Positions 3,906 to 13,600 of a stretch of DNA of 50,271 bases are shown here, in pieces. The translations under genes were made by a program, and so were the position numbers. Every line of letters starts with the position of its first letter. The stretch's first letter is position 1. The stretch spans positions 1 to 50,271 of the forward strand of contig JAFYBJ010000026.1 of assembly GCA_017540265.1 (NCBI GenBank), in the 5' to 3' direction. The notes under the pieces are model-generated. The model was not told where the DNA came from, searched no databases, and saw only the letters and a list, made by a program, of their open reading frames with translations. Source of the stretch: Lachnospiraceae bacterium (GTDB lineage Bacteria; Bacillota; Clostridia; Lachnospirales; Lachnospiraceae).

Positions 3906-5255
3906 TCAGATAACCCCGGATAATTTTTCAGCCAAAAGTCCGATCCTTTCATACGTTACCATACGGCACAGACTGTCCGTGAATTTCCCGTATTTGCGGT
4001 AAAGAAAATTAAACAGGAAATATGCGGGTCTGATCTCTTTTGCTTTTGGGCAACGCCTGATGATATTTTTAAAACTGTATATATCCTTATATATCTTAAG
4101 ATAACCATTGTATAATTCCTGACGCGTCATACCTTTGGGTTTATAGACCACATGCGCAGTATTATACAGGGAAAGGTTCTTTGTAAGTATCCGTCCTTCT
4201 TTGTTCATTCTGTCGTACAAGGCCGTTCCGGGATAAGGTGTAAGAATATGGGAAGTTACCGTCTCTATCCTGTTTTTTACGATCCAGTCCAATGTTGTTT
4301 TAAAGGTTTCTGCCGTATCTCCGTCCAGCCCGAATACGAAGCTTGCATTGATCATTATCCCTCTGTCATGGATAGCCTTTACAGCCCTTTCATAATCCTT
4401 TACATGGTTCTGAACCTTATGCACTCCGTTTACCGATGCAGGGTTGATACTCTCAAATCCGATAAACAGACTCTGGCAGCCTGATCGTTTCATAAGATCA
4501 AGCAGTTCCTCATCAAAAGCTGCATTTATTGAGACCGCAGCGCTCCATTTGATATGCATCGGCTCGATTACATGCAGAAATTTACGTGTCCATTTTGGAT
4601 TTCCGGCAAAATTATCATCAATAAACATGATATGCCTGGTATGGACCGCCCGTATATCGGCAAGAACATCTTTTATCTCACGGTTTATAAACTGACGCTC
4701 TTTCGCACTGTTATAACAAAAATCACATTTGAAGGGACAGCCGCGGCTGGTATGGACCACGTTGCAATACAGGTAATCCCACTTGTTTACAAAGTCGTAC
4801 GCCGGTGATACCAGATCCTTTCCTGTTAGCGGCCGTTCACAGTGATATACCTTTTTAAGACTGCTATTTTTAAAATCTTCTATTATCTGAGGCCAGGTCC
4901 CCTCAGCGGCGCCTACGCAGAATACGTCAAAGGCATCCTTTGGGACCAGATGATAAGCAGTAGTGATATGGATACCGCCTGCGACCACGATACTTCCTTT
5001 TTCACGGAAACGCCTTGCGATCTTTATCGCCCTGGGGAGCGTATCGACGGTTACAGAGATCCCCACGATATCCGGTGTATCTTCATATCGTATGCGTCCT
5101 ATATTTTCATTTTCCAGTTCGACCCTGTTTTCATCCCGTAACAGATTAACGATAGTAAGCAGGCCAAGAGGCGGAGCCATATGCAGTTTTATTCCGGTAT
5201 CCATAGGCCGGCGTAACATCTTAGGCTGGATAAGCTTAATATACAGACGTTTCAT
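3906..5255 (-). CDS. B12-binding-type radical SAM protein, target unknown
   Basis: A protein of about 449 residues. Counting from the upstream in-frame ATG at 5264, residues 1-140 resemble a cobalamin-binding Rossmann fold (PPLGLLTIVNLL, DIVGISVT, VVAGGIHIT), without an obvious DxHxxG cobalt-ligand motif. C176, C180 and C183 (CPFKCDFC) hold the radical SAM cluster, followed by FIDDNF, GFESI and FVFGLDGD strand motifs. This is the BchE/methyltransferase-like architecture, in which members methylate or rearrange unactivated carbons. I chose the ATG at 5255 because GGGGAG lies 11 bases upstream; the ATG at 5264, which overlaps the previous stop as ATGA, has only 2 bases of spacing. It is coupled to the 99-residue protein before it. 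The substrate is unknown. Confidence 0.82.
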   Translation of the reverse strand: MKRLYIKLIQPKMLRRPMDTGIKLHMAPPLGLLTIVNLLRDENRVELENENIGRIRYEDTPDIVGISVTVDTLPRAIKIARRFREKGSIVVAGGIHITTAYHLVPKDAFDVFCVGAAEGTWPQIIEDFKNSSLKKVYHCERPLTGKDLVSPAYDFVNKWDYLYCNVVHTSRGCPFKCDFCYNSAKERQFINREIKDVLADIRAVHTRHIMFIDDNFAGNPKWTRKFLHVIEPMHIKWSAAVSINAAFDEELLDLMKRSGCQSLFIGFESINPASVNGVHKVQNHVKDYERAVKAIHDRGIMINASFVFGLDGDTAETFKTTLDWIVKNRIETVTSHILTPYPGTALYDRMNKEGRILTKNLSLYNTAHVVYKPKGMTRQELYNGYLKIYKDIYSFKNIIRRCPKAKEIRPAYFLFNFLYRKYGKFTDSLCRMVTYERIGLLAEKLSGVI

Positions 5256-5260
5256 GAAAA

Positions 5261-5560
5261 TCATATCTCCCCGTCGCTTAAGCCATGATTAAGGATCTCG
5301 TTATACTTTGCATTGGCTTCTTCACTTGCTTTCTTTTCACGCCATCTGTCTATATCGCTGCAGATGGCAAGCATCTCATCAACGATGAGCTCTGCGCTCA
5401 CCGGTTTTACATTATAAAGATAGCTCATCATGCGATCCATTGCCTTAGGACTTCCTAACTGCCTTGCTATCTGTTCGCCAAGCTCCTCAGGGAAGCCCAG
5501 ATCCTTTATCGCTAAAATAAGTTTATCCCTGCTTCTTGCCCATTCCATCCTGCTGTCCAT
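5261..5560 (-). CDS. Small helical protein of unknown function
   Basis: A 99-residue protein I cannot assign to a named family. It reads as mainly alpha-helical and charged, with a conserved-looking core around residues 28-75 (LGEQIARQLGSPKAMDRM, then SAELIVDEMLAICSDIDRW). There is no signal peptide, membrane segment or cysteine pair. A GGAG lies about 10 bases before the ATG. Its stop overlaps the next possible start (ATGA) of the radical SAM gene, so the two are translationally coupled; it could be a small partner or substrate-side factor for that enzyme. The hipA-like genes lie 55 bases upstream on the same strand. Confidence 0.6.
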   Translation of the reverse strand: MDSRMEWARSRDKLILAIKDLGFPEELGEQIARQLGSPKAMDRMMSYLYNVKPVSAELIVDEMLAICSDIDRWREKKASEEANAKYNEILNHGLSDGEI

Positions 5561-5615: not shown

Positions 5616-6308
5616 TTATACTCTTATCATATTTTTCGTTATTATTGAACGAATGTATTCCACAGTTTTTTCTTTTATTCCTGTTTTTTCGGCAATTGAA
5701 GTAAAATTATCGATTGAGACACCTACCTCGCTTATAATATCTTTACAGCGTCTTTCTTTAATACCCATTTTTTTGCCGGCTTTAAGCAGATCTGACAGAT
5801 CAAAATCTGTAGTTTTTCCATTTACAGTCATCTGATGTGCCCGTAACCATTTGTTATCCGGATTATATGAAAAAGTGATATCATATGCAGGCGACAGCCT
5901 CCAGGTTCCGCTTTTGTCCATAATAAAGGAAACATTCTTTACGTGATCATCCTGGTTGACCGCCAGGCAGTTAAATACCATCCTGCGATAGAACTGATCT
6001 ATCTCCTTATGAAAAAGCCCTAATTCTTTCATATAGGAAGCGGCCTGCTCGTATCCGCACAGTCCGGCCTCCTGATAACTGATATGTGTGAGCGCGCCCA
6101 GTGATTGCATATGAAGCTTCTTACCGGCCTCTCTGTCAAAACGCTTTGTCATAAAATGATGACAGCCTTCAGAACTGTATATTCTGCATGGACTCATAAT
6201 AATTCCTGCATTCTCAGCCATAAGATAATAAGCATATTCTATCAATGTGTATTCAGGTTTATCTTCAATACCATGATCGCCATTTTTTAAAACATTATCA
6301 AACTTCAT
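5616..6308 (-). CDS. HipA-like toxin kinase, C-terminal part (separate frame)
   Basis: This frame carries the C-terminal kinase lobe of a HipA-type Ser/Thr kinase (HipA_C, PF07804). Counting from the TTG at 6311, the catalytic loop NQDDHVKN spans residues 119-126, with D121 as the expected base and N126 as metal ligand. SPAYD at 140-144 supplies the second metal aspartate. The frame opens at MKFD, the ATP-binding lysine strand, so all kinase residues are present. The ATG at 6308 overlaps the stop of the upstream half as TGATG, with no good ribosome binding site. Upstream in this frame the DNA still reads PGYDYWL, which suggests the two halves were once one gene or are joined by frameshifting. 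Confidence 0.82.
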   Translation of the reverse strand: MKFDNVLKNGDHGIEDKPEYTLIEYAYYLMAENAGIIMSPCRIYSSEGCHHFMTKRFDREAGKKLHMQSLGALTHISYQEAGLCGYEQAASYMKELGLFHKEIDQFYRRMVFNCLAVNQDDHVKNVSFIMDKSGTWRLSPAYDITFSYNPDNKWLRAHQMTVNGKTTDFDLSDLLKAGKKMGIKERRCKDIISEVGVSIDNFTSIAEKTGIKEKTVEYIRSIITKNMIRV

Positions 6309-6913
6309 CAACCAGTAATCATACCCGGGCCAAGCTGCAATTGTCCTGATCTGATCTCATTCGTATCCTCGTTCCAGGCTATTAAAGCTTTAGCCCTTGC
6401 CCCGCCGGCAGATGTTCCTGCCTGTACTAATTGTGAATATGTCAGATTATCAGAAGCGTTTAGGCGTATACTCTCTTTTCCGGATAATACATCTGAAGCA
6501 AAATTAACCATTGAACTGACATTAATTTTCTCATCAATATCATTTATATCCGTGATCGCGGGAACATATTCCAGTGCGCCCATTCCCCGCTTTCCGGTGT
6601 AACAAAGCCTGTCGATCGCAGTAAAATCCGATAATGATCTTCCCATGGACATAAGCCACTGTTCTATGACGGCATTTCCGAATCTATCCGGTAAAGAATC
6701 TGCAACTAAACCCGGCATCCCATAAAAAGGGGTTCCGGTTAAATACGGAAATTCATACACATTTCTTCCAAGCGGCATACGTATCGGCGACAATTCTATT
6801 CCGCTATCAGCAAAATCCCTGTCATATTCAAATGCTGCATAAGCAGCAGAAGGATCCTGATGAATTATGCCTATCCTTGTTCCCCATAAGAATACCTCTG
6901 CTGTATCATTCAA
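6308..6913 (-). CDS. HipA-like toxin kinase, N-terminal part (frame ends early)
   Basis: A 201-residue N-terminal half of a HipA protein: residues 1-100 match the HipA N-subdomain 1 / couple_hipA region, and GTSAGGARAK at 166-175 is the glycine-rich loop typical of the family. The frame stops four residues after LGPG, just before the ATP-binding strand. The start codon is TTG at 6913, overlapping the hipB-like stop, with GGGGTGA a few bases upstream; no earlier ATG is available. Together with the next frame it makes about 432 residues, the normal size of a whole HipA. The split falls at about residue 197, unlike HipBST systems, where the separate HipS protein is only about 100 residues. Confidence 0.82.
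   Translation of the reverse strand: MNDTAEVFLWGTRIGIIHQDPSAAYAAFEYDRDFADSGIELSPIRMPLGRNVYEFPYLTGTPFYGMPGLVADSLPDRFGNAVIEQWLMSMGRSLSDFTAIDRLCYTGKRGMGALEYVPAITDINDIDEKINVSSMVNFASDVLSGKESIRLNASDNLTYSQLVQAGTSAGGARAKALIAWNEDTNEIRSGQLQLGPGMITG
6322..6328 (-). other. CCCGGGT heptamer at the hipA frame break
   Basis: Read on the minus strand, the N-terminal hipA frame is GGC CCG GGT ATG. The heptamer C-CCG-GGT fits the X-XXY-YYZ form of a -1 slippery site. Slipping back one base after decoding CCG GGT continues as TAT GAT TAC TGG TTG ATG AAG, giving GPG-YDYWLMKFD, the sequence expected in an intact HipA. A one-base deletion in the G run or a sequencing error would look identical. I see no obvious strong downstream stimulatory stem. 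Confidence 0.4.
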
Positions 6914-7242
6914 TTCTCATCACCCCATTTAAATCCCTTTTTTCCGGATCTTTTTCCGACTCTTTTAGGTGTGTTCTCTGATCTGTCAAGATAAAAAGCA
7001 GGTCTTTTGGTTTGATCGGGAATAAGATTCTCAATATTATCACCCAGCCCCAATGCCAGCAGGATCTTGAATAAAATGTCAGTATTCACGGCCTCTCCCT
7101 GCTCTAATCGGGATATACTTCTTTTGGAAACGCCTGTTTTATCTGCCAGCTCCTGTTGTGACATTTCTTTGAAAATCCTGTATATTTTTATTTTTTTTCC
7201 TAATTCTTTAATGAGTTCCTCAGAATTGTTATGATCAGCCAT
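6910..7242 (-). CDS. HipB-like XRE-family antitoxin/repressor
   Basis: A 110-residue DNA-binding protein with one helix-turn-helix: SQQELADKTGVSKRSISRLEQG is the recognition unit, followed by a dimerising LFKILLALGLG helix. The C-terminal 35 residues are basic and probably flexible, the part that in HipB-type proteins often contacts the toxin. I took the ATG at 7242; the frame is open up to a TTG at 7285, but those extra codons overlap the likely promoter. The stop overlaps the TTG start of the hipA-like gene by two bases, so antitoxin and toxin are coupled. Autorepression is expected from the family. Confidence 0.8.
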   Translation of the reverse strand: MADHNNSEELIKELGKKIKIYRIFKEMSQQELADKTGVSKRSISRLEQGEAVNTDILFKILLALGLGDNIENLIPDQTKRPAFYLDRSENTPKRVGKRSGKKGFKWGDEN

Positions 7243-10698: not shown

Positions 10699-13600
10699 TC
10701 AGTCGTCTAATTCCTCATTTATAAGATTTACGGATACAAGTGTTGAAACACCTTTCTCCTGCATGGTAATACCATAGAGCCTGTCAGCTTTTTCCATGGT
10801 ACCGCGTCTGTGTGTTATTACGATAAACTGCGTATGCTCGGTAAGCTTGTGCAGATACCCTGCATAGCGCCCTACATTGCTCTCGTCTAACGCTGCCTCT
10901 ATCTCATCTAAGAGACAGAAGGGTGAAGGCTTTAAGTTCTGGATGGCAAAGAGCAGCGCTATTGCGGTAAGCGCCTTCTCTCCGCCGGAAAGCTGCATCA
11001 TATTCTGCAGCTTCTTTCCGGGGGGCTCAGCATTTATCATTATGCCCGCTTCAAGAATATCCTCATCTTCAAGCAGTTTTAGTGAAGCATTTCCGCCTCC
11101 GAACAGCTCCTTGAAGACTTTATTGAATTCTTTGCCGATCTCATCGAATTTCTCCGTGAACAGCTCTCTCATGCGGCTGTCAAGTTCTTCTATTATACCC
11201 TTTAATTCTTCCTCCGCTTTTATAAGATCATCATGCTGGGCCTTAAGGAAGGTATAGCGTTCCATCTGGGTCTGGTACTCCTCGATGGCATTGACATTTA
11301 CATCTCCCAGCTTCTTTATCGCATCCTTAAGCGCGTCCTTATCGGTCTTTAACTTTGAAAGATCGGTAAGATCAGGATCCTTTAAGCCCTCTGCTTCATT
11401 CATGGTCAGCTCATATTCGGACCACATATAGCTCTTTAAGCCTTCAAGCTCTTCATCAAGACGTTTCTTCTGCTCGCTTAAACGGAAAGCCTCTTTATCA
11501 AGATCGTTAATATGACCGTTCATATCTTCGCGTCTTCTGATAAAGCTCTTATTCTTTTCGGAAAGCTCTTCACGTTTGGAAGTAAGGGAATCAAGCTTAT
11601 CCTTCGTATCGCTTTCCGCAGTATATGAAGCCTCTATGGTCTTCTTTACCTCTTCGATATTATGAGTTCTGTCTTCTATCGTCTCACCGGCCTTTTTTAT
11701 CGCCTCTTCTGTCTCGGTCTTTTCGGTGCGCCTGCTTTCGATCTCGTTAATTATGCGGTTAACACCGGCCTGTTCGTATTCCTGCTTCTGAATGGCTTTT
11801 TCAAGCGCAACTTCTTTTTCGGTCACTTCCTGATTCTTTGCAAGCTCATCATCCCTTAAAGCCTCGAGTTTTATCTGAAGCTCTTCGATCTCTTTAGTAA
11901 AGCTTTCCTCATCTCTTGCGGAATTCTTAAGATCCTCATCGAGCTTTAAGCTGTTTTCCTTAATATCAACTACCTGTTTCTCGATCTCTGACTGTTCTGC
12001 ATTCAGATCTCCGACACCCTTCTTGGTTTCGTCTATCTTTTCCTGAGCCTTCTGGAGATTTAAGTTTGCAGTGTTCATCTTGATAAACTGAGCCTGTATC
12101 TTTGATTTTGTCTCTTCATTATCAAGCCTTAACTTATTACGCTCTGCTTTTATATCTTCTATCTCTTTTAAGCAAGTGTCGATCTTTTTAAGGGAAGCTT
12201 TTACCTTTTCATCCAGTTCTTCCATCTCCCTGCGTCTTCCCAACAGGTTTGAATTATTCTTAAAACGGCCGCCGCTTATTGCACCTCCGGGGACCAAAAG
12301 CTCTCCGTCAATCGTTACCATCCTTATCCCGTAACGGTATTTCCTGGCAATCTTTAAGGCATTATCCATATTGTCCACTACAAGAATGCGTCCGAGCATG
12401 CTTCGTGCCACATCCCTGTATATCTCTTCCGTGTCAACTATGGTATCGGCAAGACCTATGACGCCGGGTTCATTTAAGGATTCCGGATTCTTAAATTCCT
12501 GAGGGTCCTTTATGGATGTAAGAGGAAGGAATGTAGCTCTTCCGCCCCTTACTTCCTTAAGATAGGAGATCATCTTCTTTGCGGTCTCCTCATCTTCCGT
12601 GACGATATTCTGTATATTTCCGCCAAGAGCGGTCTCTATGGCAGTCTCATATTTCTTTTCTGTCTTGATGATATCCGCAACAACACCTATGATGCCGCTT
12701 ACCTCGGCCTTCTTTTCCATTACCTGCTTGACTGAACCGCCGTAGCCTTCGTATCTTTCGGTAATATTTGCGATGGCATCATAACGGCTCTTGTCTTCAT
12801 GGTAGATCACCTGGGTGTCCCTCAGTTCTTTATCCTTATCAGACAGCTCCGTATGTATTTCTTCAAGACGTTCTTCCGTATGGCTCTGTTTAAGATTAAG
12901 ATCCTCAAGTTCCTTATTTATTTTTTCAAACTCTTCTTTCAGGCCGGCTATTACAGTCCTTTGCTCTTCTTCGTCTGATTTTGCCTGAATGAAACGTGAA
13001 TTGATCTCTGCTTTACGCACCTTTGTGTTTTCAAGCATGGTGTCATAACGTTCCTTTTTGGATCGTGTCTCGGTGCGCATATTGAGAAGTTCGATGATCC
13101 TTGCCTTCTTATCCTCTATTGATGCGTCGATCGAAGAAATATTCTCCTGTATCGCATCAAGCTCTGACTTCTTTGAATCTCTTTCATTTTTTATCGCATC
13201 CAGCTCATCATCTGCAGCGCCCTTATTCTTTGAAAGATCGTCCTTCTCTCTTTCTCTTTCAAGTATTTCGGTATCAAGGGTCTCAAGTCTTTTTTTGTGC
13301 TGCGCTATTGAAGCCTTTGCGGAATTGATCTGTTCCTCAAAGACTTTTATCTCGCCCTCAAGTCTTGTTCTGGCAGAACCTGTATCACTTAAGGAATTTC
13401 TTGTTTCCTCTATCTCTTTATCCAGTTCTTCAAGAGACTTTTCTATCTCCTCATACTCAAGTCTTATATTTTCAAATTCGGCTTTTTCCCTTGAAAGATC
13501 TTCATTAAGGATGGAGAGTTTCTTATCCGTTTCGGCCTTAACGCCTTCTTTTCTGTCCGTTTCTAAAAGGAAATAATTAACATCAAGGCGCTTAAGCTCC

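What the first reader, a model, noticed from the sequence alone, without database searches (positions are those of the whole stretch)
6308..6340. hipA split at a CCCGGGT slippery-type heptamer
Seen: the N-terminal HipA frame ends four residues after LGPG, while the -1 frame reads straight through as PGYDYWLMKFD into an intact kinase lobe with all catalytic residues. The switch point is C-CCG-GGT, formally X-XXY-YYZ. Known: HipA is normally one chain of about 430-440 residues, and the two parts sum to that. The split is not where HipBST divides. Inference: programmed -1 frameshifting, translational coupling of two separate halves (TGATG), a recent one-base deletion inactivating the toxin, or a sequencing error. 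The first two would be a new way to set toxin dose.
Basis: partly seen in the sequence, partly recalled or inferred. Interest (0 to 1): 0.72.

Follow-up and report, generated by a model that had tools for sequence, protein, structure and literature searches.

The report
Frameshifted HipA toxin gene
A gut bacterium carries a common toxin-antitoxin gene pair whose toxin gene is cut in two by a shift of reading frame, most likely a recent mutation (or a sequence error) rather than a new way of controlling toxin dose.

Summary
The break is in the sequence as described: on the minus strand a hipA frame (6913-6308) ends in TGA four residues after LGPG, the -1 frame carries the rest of the kinase (to 5616), and C_CCG_GGT (6329-6323) lies in the 46-nt overlap. 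In 80 of 80 kept relatives both parts are in one frame here and 0 of 80 have the heptamer. Recoding lacks support: C_CC.G_GG.U is called a poor frameshifter in E. coli (PMC4066793) and the RNA behind it folds no better than shuffles. The neighbourhood points to decay: of 11 relatives with a close hipB, hipA is intact in 5 and truncated, broken or gone in 6, at differing places. The window's two parts still keep 109 of the 111 invariant positions they cover, so the break is very recent, or an assembly error. A frame-break scan of 385 kb of this draft genome (about 69 kb comparable) found one other candidate, which looks like two separate genes; this mildly favours a real mutation. Ordinary: another case of toxin loss beside a kept antitoxin.

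The parts
6910..7242 (-). hipB: HTH antitoxin, open, ending KGFKWGDEN; its stop overlaps the hipA start (TTGA)
   Evidence: HTH_3 E 8.2e-11; aligned with relatives, tail present
6308..6913 (-). hipA 5' part: N-subdomain 1 (Couple_hipA) and the Gly-rich loop region (TSAGGARAK), 201 aa, stop TGA 6310-6308
   Evidence: invariant loop residues
6323..6329 (-). CCCGGGT heptamer at the frame change, formally X_XXY_YYZ in the first frame
6305..6310 (-). two tandem TGA codons of the first frame; ATG 6308-6306 of the other frame overlaps (TGATG)
5616..6356 (-). hipA 3' part, -1 frame: Lys strand (LMKFD), catalytic NQDDHxKN and PAYD motifs; open frame from behind the TGA at 6359, first start codon TTG 6311
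   Evidence: HipA_C E 1.7e-44; open frame of 246 aa without stop

Best explanation
A hipBA toxin-antitoxin module whose toxin gene has been put out of frame by a recent small indel at a short C/G run. Shown: two frames here, one continuous frame at this site in each of 80 relatives. Inferred: translation from the hipA start ends after the Gly-rich loop, giving a 201-aa fragment with part of the kinase N-lobe; the 3' part is at most reinitiated weakly, so no working kinase is made, while the HTH antitoxin HipB stays intact and may go on as an autorepressor or orphan antitoxin. The loss is tolerated or favoured, as in six close relatives that kept a hipB but lost hipA. The C_CCG_GGT heptamer is what the indel left behind, not a recoding signal.
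For: Of 11 relatives with hipB at least 60% identical to the window's, hipA is intact in 5 and truncated, broken or absent in 6; 14 of 15 more distant hipB loci have intact hipA, the other is cut by its contig end. The two parts keep 109 of 111 covered invariant positions; one change is the TTG start codon, the other E to D. dN to the nearest intact copy (0.118 and 0.110 for the two halves) lies within the range among intact copies, so no amino-acid decay is seen. The W-G-acidic-acidic tail of HipB is present here and in 19 of 19 hipA-intact loci and altered in 2 of 6 hipA-less ones, again fitting a young loss. The frame-break scan of 385 kb of the draft genome gave one other candidate, which looks like two separate genes.
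Against: No reads and no second genome of the species were available, so an error cannot be excluded. The scan could compare only about 69 kb. PMC3711429 expects lone frame changes confirmed by BLASTp to be sequencing errors rather than indel mutations (passage). Lack of further decay is also what an error, or a gene still in use through recoding, would show. In G006 the start of hipB is unlike the others, so not every hipA-less locus keeps a whole hipB. The 3' half of the window has a high first+second to third position branch ratio (0.045; lower in 14 of 16 relatives), which could hint at older relaxation, but third positions are saturated and the 5' half does not show it (0.023).
Confidence: 0.62

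Rival explanations
1. Assembly or consensus error: the organism (or most of its strains) has hipA in one frame and the draft metagenome contig is off by a small indel at the C/G run.
For: The genome is a draft (67 contigs, 72.91% complete); no clear sign of decay in either half; the break sits at a CCCGGG run; PMC3711429 expects lone frame changes validated by BLASTp to be sequencing errors rather than genuine indels (passage).
Against: One other candidate in the comparable part of 385 kb, which looks like two genes; no second split gene seen among the 35 of 40 scanned window ORFs that matched a family (5 had no match); the run is only three C and three G; the one broken gene is of a kind lost in 6 of 11 close relatives.
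Confidence: 0.27
2. Programmed -1 ribosomal frameshifting on C_CCG_GGT makes a small amount of full-length HipA and so sets toxin dose.
For: Heptamer in the right frame inside the overlap; stop just behind it; an AGGA 14 nt upstream (read by eye); both halves conserved. In PMC4066793 C_CC.G_GG.U is not among the three motifs that stayed below threshold with the strongest stimulator.
Against: Site not shared by any of 80 relatives. PMC4066793 calls C_CC.G_GG.U a poor frameshifter in E. coli. Folds starting 3 nt behind the site: z 0.41, 0.44, -0.33 and 1.29. The AGGA lies in conserved Ser-Gly-Gln codons, and 38 of 80 intact relatives have some SD-like tetramer there. One of 8 viral HipA copies (L111) carries in-frame CCCGGGC without a frame change.
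Confidence: 0.04
3. Two coupled genes: the 3' part is translated by stop-start coupling at TGATG and the two chains assemble into a split kinase.
For: ATG overlaps the stop; the 3' part has start codons TTG and ATG in frame and matches HipA_C.
Against: None of 80 relatives is split here; no Shine-Dalgarno-like stretch close before the ATG on reading the sequence by eye; the cut separates the invariant Gly-rich loop from the invariant Lys strand, unlike HipBST, where it lies before the Gly-rich loop.
Confidence: 0.04
4. Phase variation: the run gains and loses a base at high rate, switching HipA on and off.
For: The break is at a short run; in two other hipA-less lineages the hipB tail is altered at a G run (my reading); 5 of 8 viral relatives have CCCGGG in some frame at the site.
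Against: The run here is only CCCGGG, with no tandem repeat, the feature PMC3711429 asks for in this class; 0 of 80 genome relatives have CCCGGG there in any frame.
Confidence: 0.02

Closest known systems
hipBA type II toxin-antitoxin module (HipA Ser/Thr kinase with HTH HipB)
   Same: Gene order, overlapping stop and start, Couple_hipA and HipA_C domains, HipB C-terminal Trp tail, the invariant catalytic residues
   Different: hipA is in two frames; no single chain is encoded
HipBST (split HipA homolog: HipS antitoxin, HipT kinase)
   Same: Two consecutive ORFs cover the length of one HipA, behind a HipB
   Different: HipBST is cut after the roughly 100-aa N-subdomain 1, leaving the Gly-rich loop with the kinase; here the cut comes about 25 residues after the Gly-rich loop, inside the N-lobe
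Degraded toxin genes with retained (orphan) antitoxins, e.g. the parE pseudogene of Caulobacter and frameshifted yacB of Shigella, reviewed in PMC7354431 (passages)
   Same: Toxin put out of action beside an open antitoxin gene
   Different: Other toxin families; here the decay looks very recent
Programmed -1 frameshift genes on X_XXY_YYZ heptamers (IS1 and IS3 families; dnaX recalled)
   Same: Formal heptamer and short overlap before a stop
   Different: No conservation, poor motif, no stimulatory structure found

Membership tests
hipBA (HipA toxin) | HTH antitoxin gene directly upstream | tested here: met
   hipB 7242-6910, HTH_3, overlaps the hipA start
hipBA (HipA toxin) | Couple_hipA and HipA_C domains | tested here: met
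   one on each part
hipBA (HipA toxin) | One continuous chain with Gly-rich loop, Lys, catalytic and Mg-binding motifs | tested here: not met
   motifs present but in two frames
hipBA (HipA toxin) | Kinase activity, neutralised by HipB | not testable with these tools
   needs an assay
HipBST | Cut between N-subdomain 1 and the Gly-rich loop | tested here: not met
   loop residues (G166-K175 in L004 numbering) are in the first part, placed up to 197; the second part starts at 202 from its TTG; HipBST anatomy from passages of PMC8262856 and PMC10627512
Programmed -1 frameshifting | X_XXY_YYZ in the first frame inside the overlap | tested here: met
   but C_CC.G_GG.U is called a poor shifter in PMC4066793
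Programmed -1 frameshifting | Shift site conserved among relatives | tested here: not met
   0 of 80 relatives broken here or with CCCGGGN in frame
Programmed -1 frameshifting | Stimulatory structure downstream | tested here: not met
   z-scores 0.41, 0.44, -0.33, 1.29 for four lengths; pseudoknots not modelled
Programmed -1 frameshifting | Upstream Shine-Dalgarno-like stimulator | tested here: inconclusive
   AGGA 14 nt before the heptamer (read by eye), within conserved SGQ codons; an SD-like tetramer in 38 of 80 intact relatives
Translationally coupled split gene | Split kept in relatives | tested here: not met
   0 of 80
Phase-variable gene | Tandem repeat or long homopolymer at the break | tested here: not met
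   only CCCGGG
Toxin pseudogene with retained antitoxin | Intact relatives, disabling lesion, antitoxin open | tested here: met
   the lesion itself could not be verified on reads

The most novel reading that the evidence does not exclude
A newly arisen recoding switch: after a one-step frame change the lineage kept HipA under selection through rare -1 slippage on C_CCG_GGT (or stop-start coupling), so that full-length toxin is made at trace dose. The conservation of both halves does not exclude it.
Probability: 0.04. Interest if true: 0.7.

Novelty: new member of a known kind. Interest (0 to 1): 0.14.

Why it matters
By itself little: toxin genes of toxin-antitoxin pairs are known to decay. 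It adds a series in one bacterial family in which hipA is lost repeatedly beside a kept hipB (6 of 11 close relatives, plus the window), with the window as the youngest step. It also shows why a formal slippery heptamer at a frame change is weak evidence for recoding. Were recoding shown, it would be a new way to set the dose of a persistence toxin.

Tried and rejected
Programmed frameshifting, coupling, phase variation and HipBST-like division were tested and set aside (see rivals). An alternative genetic code was considered only on general grounds: 45 ORFs of at least 100 aa read by table 11 cover 94% of the window, and no code removes a frame change. A weak start was considered: hipA starts with TTG, but the intact copies G086 and L011 do too, so this is not decay. 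dN/dS was of limited use: dS is saturated or undefined in many pairs. The hipB tree has weak support inside the close clade and one row (G086) was cut wrongly by my script, so its placement is void; its tail was read again. A structure model of an intact relative was asked for and not accepted. A pattern search of viral contigs for the same allele found nothing. The first part alone matched no solved structure at E 0.001. The other frame-break candidate (L181 about 11,067-11,171) is a 491-aa ORF followed by a 212-aa ORF, read by me as two cobalamin genes fused in the one reference (names recalled). One search was a script that found no files under the names I used and gave nothing. Papers listed were not opened apart from the five named in the report.

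Full report
What is there. On the minus strand the window holds hipB (7242-6910) and, overlapping its stop, a hipA frame that starts with TTG at 6913 and ends with two TGA codons at 6310-6305, four residues after LGPG. The rest of HipA lies in the -1 frame, open from behind a TGA at 6359 to the stop ending at 5616. The overlap of the two frames is 46 nt and holds one X_XXY_YYZ heptamer, CCCGGGT at 6329-6323, in register. Pfam finds Couple_hipA on the first part (E 9.8e-19), HipA_C on the second (E 1.7e-44) and HTH_3 on hipB.

How surprising is the heptamer? In 45 ORFs of the window, 131 of 15,648 codon positions carry an in-frame X_XXY_YYZ heptamer; three of these begin CCCGGG, this one included. 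Over the overlap (about 15 codons) the chance of at least one of any kind is roughly 12% (my arithmetic). A small deletion beside a short run also leaves a run at the junction by itself.

Relatives. In 80 of 80 the N and C parts are in one frame across this site, 0 of 80 have CCCGGG there in any frame, and 3 of 80 have some other in-frame heptamer. Away from this site two of the 80 look interrupted (L055, open for 303 aa; L073, open for only 124 codons upstream of the 3' part) and L008 is cut by its contig end (my reading). Eight viral-contig relatives are all in one frame; five of them have CCCGGG in some frame at the site, and one (L111) has CCCGGGC in frame without a frame change. A pattern search for the window's own allele in viral contigs gave 0. 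In the genus, 14 of 35 genomes, the own included, match the second part; besides the own genome only G012 has a full close copy (75%, open for 432 aa), and G016 has a 50-residue piece at 62%.

The locus decays often. With hipB as query I searched the genus (35 genomes) and 397 genomes of the family, and looked behind each hipB scoring above 46 bits: 27 loci with the window. Eleven relatives have hipB at least 60% identical to the window's. In five, hipA is intact (G012, G168, G086, G073, G161). In six it is not: G027 and G024 keep only about 150 residues, G027 with a further frame change; G006 matches only residues 1-28; G246 only 1-20; G016 has none beside hipB; G071 has a frame change between residues 29 and 50 and loses the 3' part after its residue 48. 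G024 and G027 probably share one event: both end alike and are followed by a 434-aa open frame, purA-like on my reading of the G027 sequence. G016 has small relics of a hipA 3' part on another contig (L093). Fifteen more distant hipB loci: 14 are followed by intact hipA and one (G365) is cut by the contig end. In G006 the start of the hipB frame is unlike the others, so the antitoxin there may be damaged too. Loss of the toxin beside a kept hipB is thus common around the window's lineage.

The window's loss is young, if real. Placed separately on an alignment of 19 intact relatives, the two window parts keep 109 of the 111 invariant positions that they cover; the two changes are the start codon (TTG) and one E to D. 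In leave-one-out, seven close intact copies keep 112 of 112 or 113. dN to the nearest intact copy, L004, is 0.118 and 0.110 for the two halves; among 28 pairs of eight intact copies it is 0.107-0.182 and 0.101-0.223. One measure goes the other way: on the terminal branch the ratio of first+second to third position change in the 3' half is 0.045 for the window, and lower in 14 of 16 relatives (L021 is higher, L012 undefined), while the 5' half gives 0.023, low among the others. Third positions are saturated, so I give this little weight. HipB still ends W-G-D-E-N. PMC10627512 (passages) says that a C-terminal Trp of E. coli HipB is placed in a pocket of HipA. W-G followed by two acidic residues is kept in 19 of 19 hipA-intact loci and altered in 2 of 6 hipA-less ones, G071 and G246, at a G run. 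The window therefore looks like a module at the first step of decay.

Mutation or error? The genome is a draft of 1.91 Mb in 67 contigs, 72.91% complete. I scanned 385,400 bases of it against 1,431 ORFs of relatives; about 69 kb had a usable hit. Two candidate breaks came out: hipA, with 47 reference ORFs (the references include 47 loci fetched because they hold hipA), and one supported by a single reference at 41-45% identity, which looks like two neighbouring genes fused in the reference. NCBIfam scans of 40 window ORFs gave a match for 35, among which I saw no second split gene; 5 had no match, and the last ORF (50265-48991) is cut by the contig end. Of the 45 ORFs, three besides the hip genes were not scanned. 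This mildly favours a real mutation over a badly polished contig, but an isolated error stays possible (0.27); PMC3711429 expects lone BLASTp-validated frame changes to be sequencing errors rather than genuine indels (passage).

Recoding. In the systematic E. coli study PMC4066793 (abstract, passages and section 17), C_CC.G_GG.C and C_CC.G_GG.U are called poor frameshifters and are underrepresented in genes; C_CC.G_GG.U is not among the three motifs that stayed below threshold with the strongest stimulator, so some shifting with a strong stimulator is possible. No such stimulator is seen: folds of 80, 65, 50 and 150 nt starting 3 nt behind the heptamer give z 0.41, 0.44, -0.33 and 1.29 (pseudoknots not modelled). 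An AGGA stands 14 nt upstream but belongs to conserved Ser-Gly-Gln codons; 38 of 80 intact relatives have an SD-like tetramer in that stretch. PMC3711429 (passages) asks for a conserved site in programmed shifts and a tandem repeat in phase variation; neither is met.

Split kinase. The invariant Gly-rich loop (G166 to K175 in L004 numbering) is in the first part; W201 is coded in the -1 frame just before its first start codon; K204 and the catalytic N320-N327 and P342-D345 stretches are in the second part. By the phmmer table, residues 25-148 of the second part match 203-336 of E. coli HipA, which would put its Lys3 near the Lys181 that I recall as ATP-binding. The cut is thus inside the kinase N-lobe. 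HipBST is cut earlier, before the Gly-rich loop (passages of PMC8262856 and PMC10627512). I therefore do not file this under HipBST.

Literature. Searches for hipA with frameshift and toxin-antitoxin (25 papers, 15 listed), programmed frameshift with toxin-antitoxin or ribosomal frameshifting (150 papers holding two of three terms, 12 listed) and hipA with pseudogene and hipB (30 papers, 10 listed) listed no title on recoding in hipA; of the papers listed there I looked into PMC3711429 only (passages). PMC7354431 (passages) reviews orphan antitoxins, with a frameshifted yacB and a parE pseudogene as examples. The kind of thing is known.

Verdict. Best reading: recently frameshifted, inactive hipA beside an intact hipB (0.62). 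Error 0.27, programmed frameshifting 0.04, coupled halves 0.04, phase variation 0.02.

Noticed in passing
G071 (L141) and G246 (L140), end of hipB: In two of six relatives without intact hipA the W-G-acidic-acidic tail of HipB is altered at a G run, while 19 of 19 hipA-intact loci keep it: the antitoxin tail may be freed once the toxin is gone.
   Followed up: partly
G027:C22:107212-108003 and G024:C11:60667-61459 (L118, L119): hipB followed by a stump of about 150 residues of hipA and then a 434-aa open frame (purA-like in G027 by my reading); probably one old truncation kept with an open antitoxin gene.
   Followed up: partly
G000:C34:1-585 (L003): A second, different HipA_C protein in the same genome, cut off by the contig start.
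   Followed up: no
L111, viral contig: A HipA relative with in-frame CCCCCCG and CCCGGGC near the same site, without any frame change.
   Followed up: no
L181 (G000:C14) about 11,067-11,171: Two cobalamin-type ORFs (names recalled) separate here but one chain in a relative; the stretch between them reads like a short repeat element (recalled impression, not tested).
   Followed up: partly
L008, L009: Short contigs (3.1 and 3.7 kb) in bins labelled Spirochaetales carry hipA 72-75% identical in the 3' part to this copy, as close as Lachnospiraceae ones; transfer or binning contamination.
   Followed up: no
window 3906-5264 (-): Radical SAM protein downstream of the hip locus, with B12-binding type matches, below the cut-off of each of the 20 NCBIfam models it matched.
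   Followed up: no
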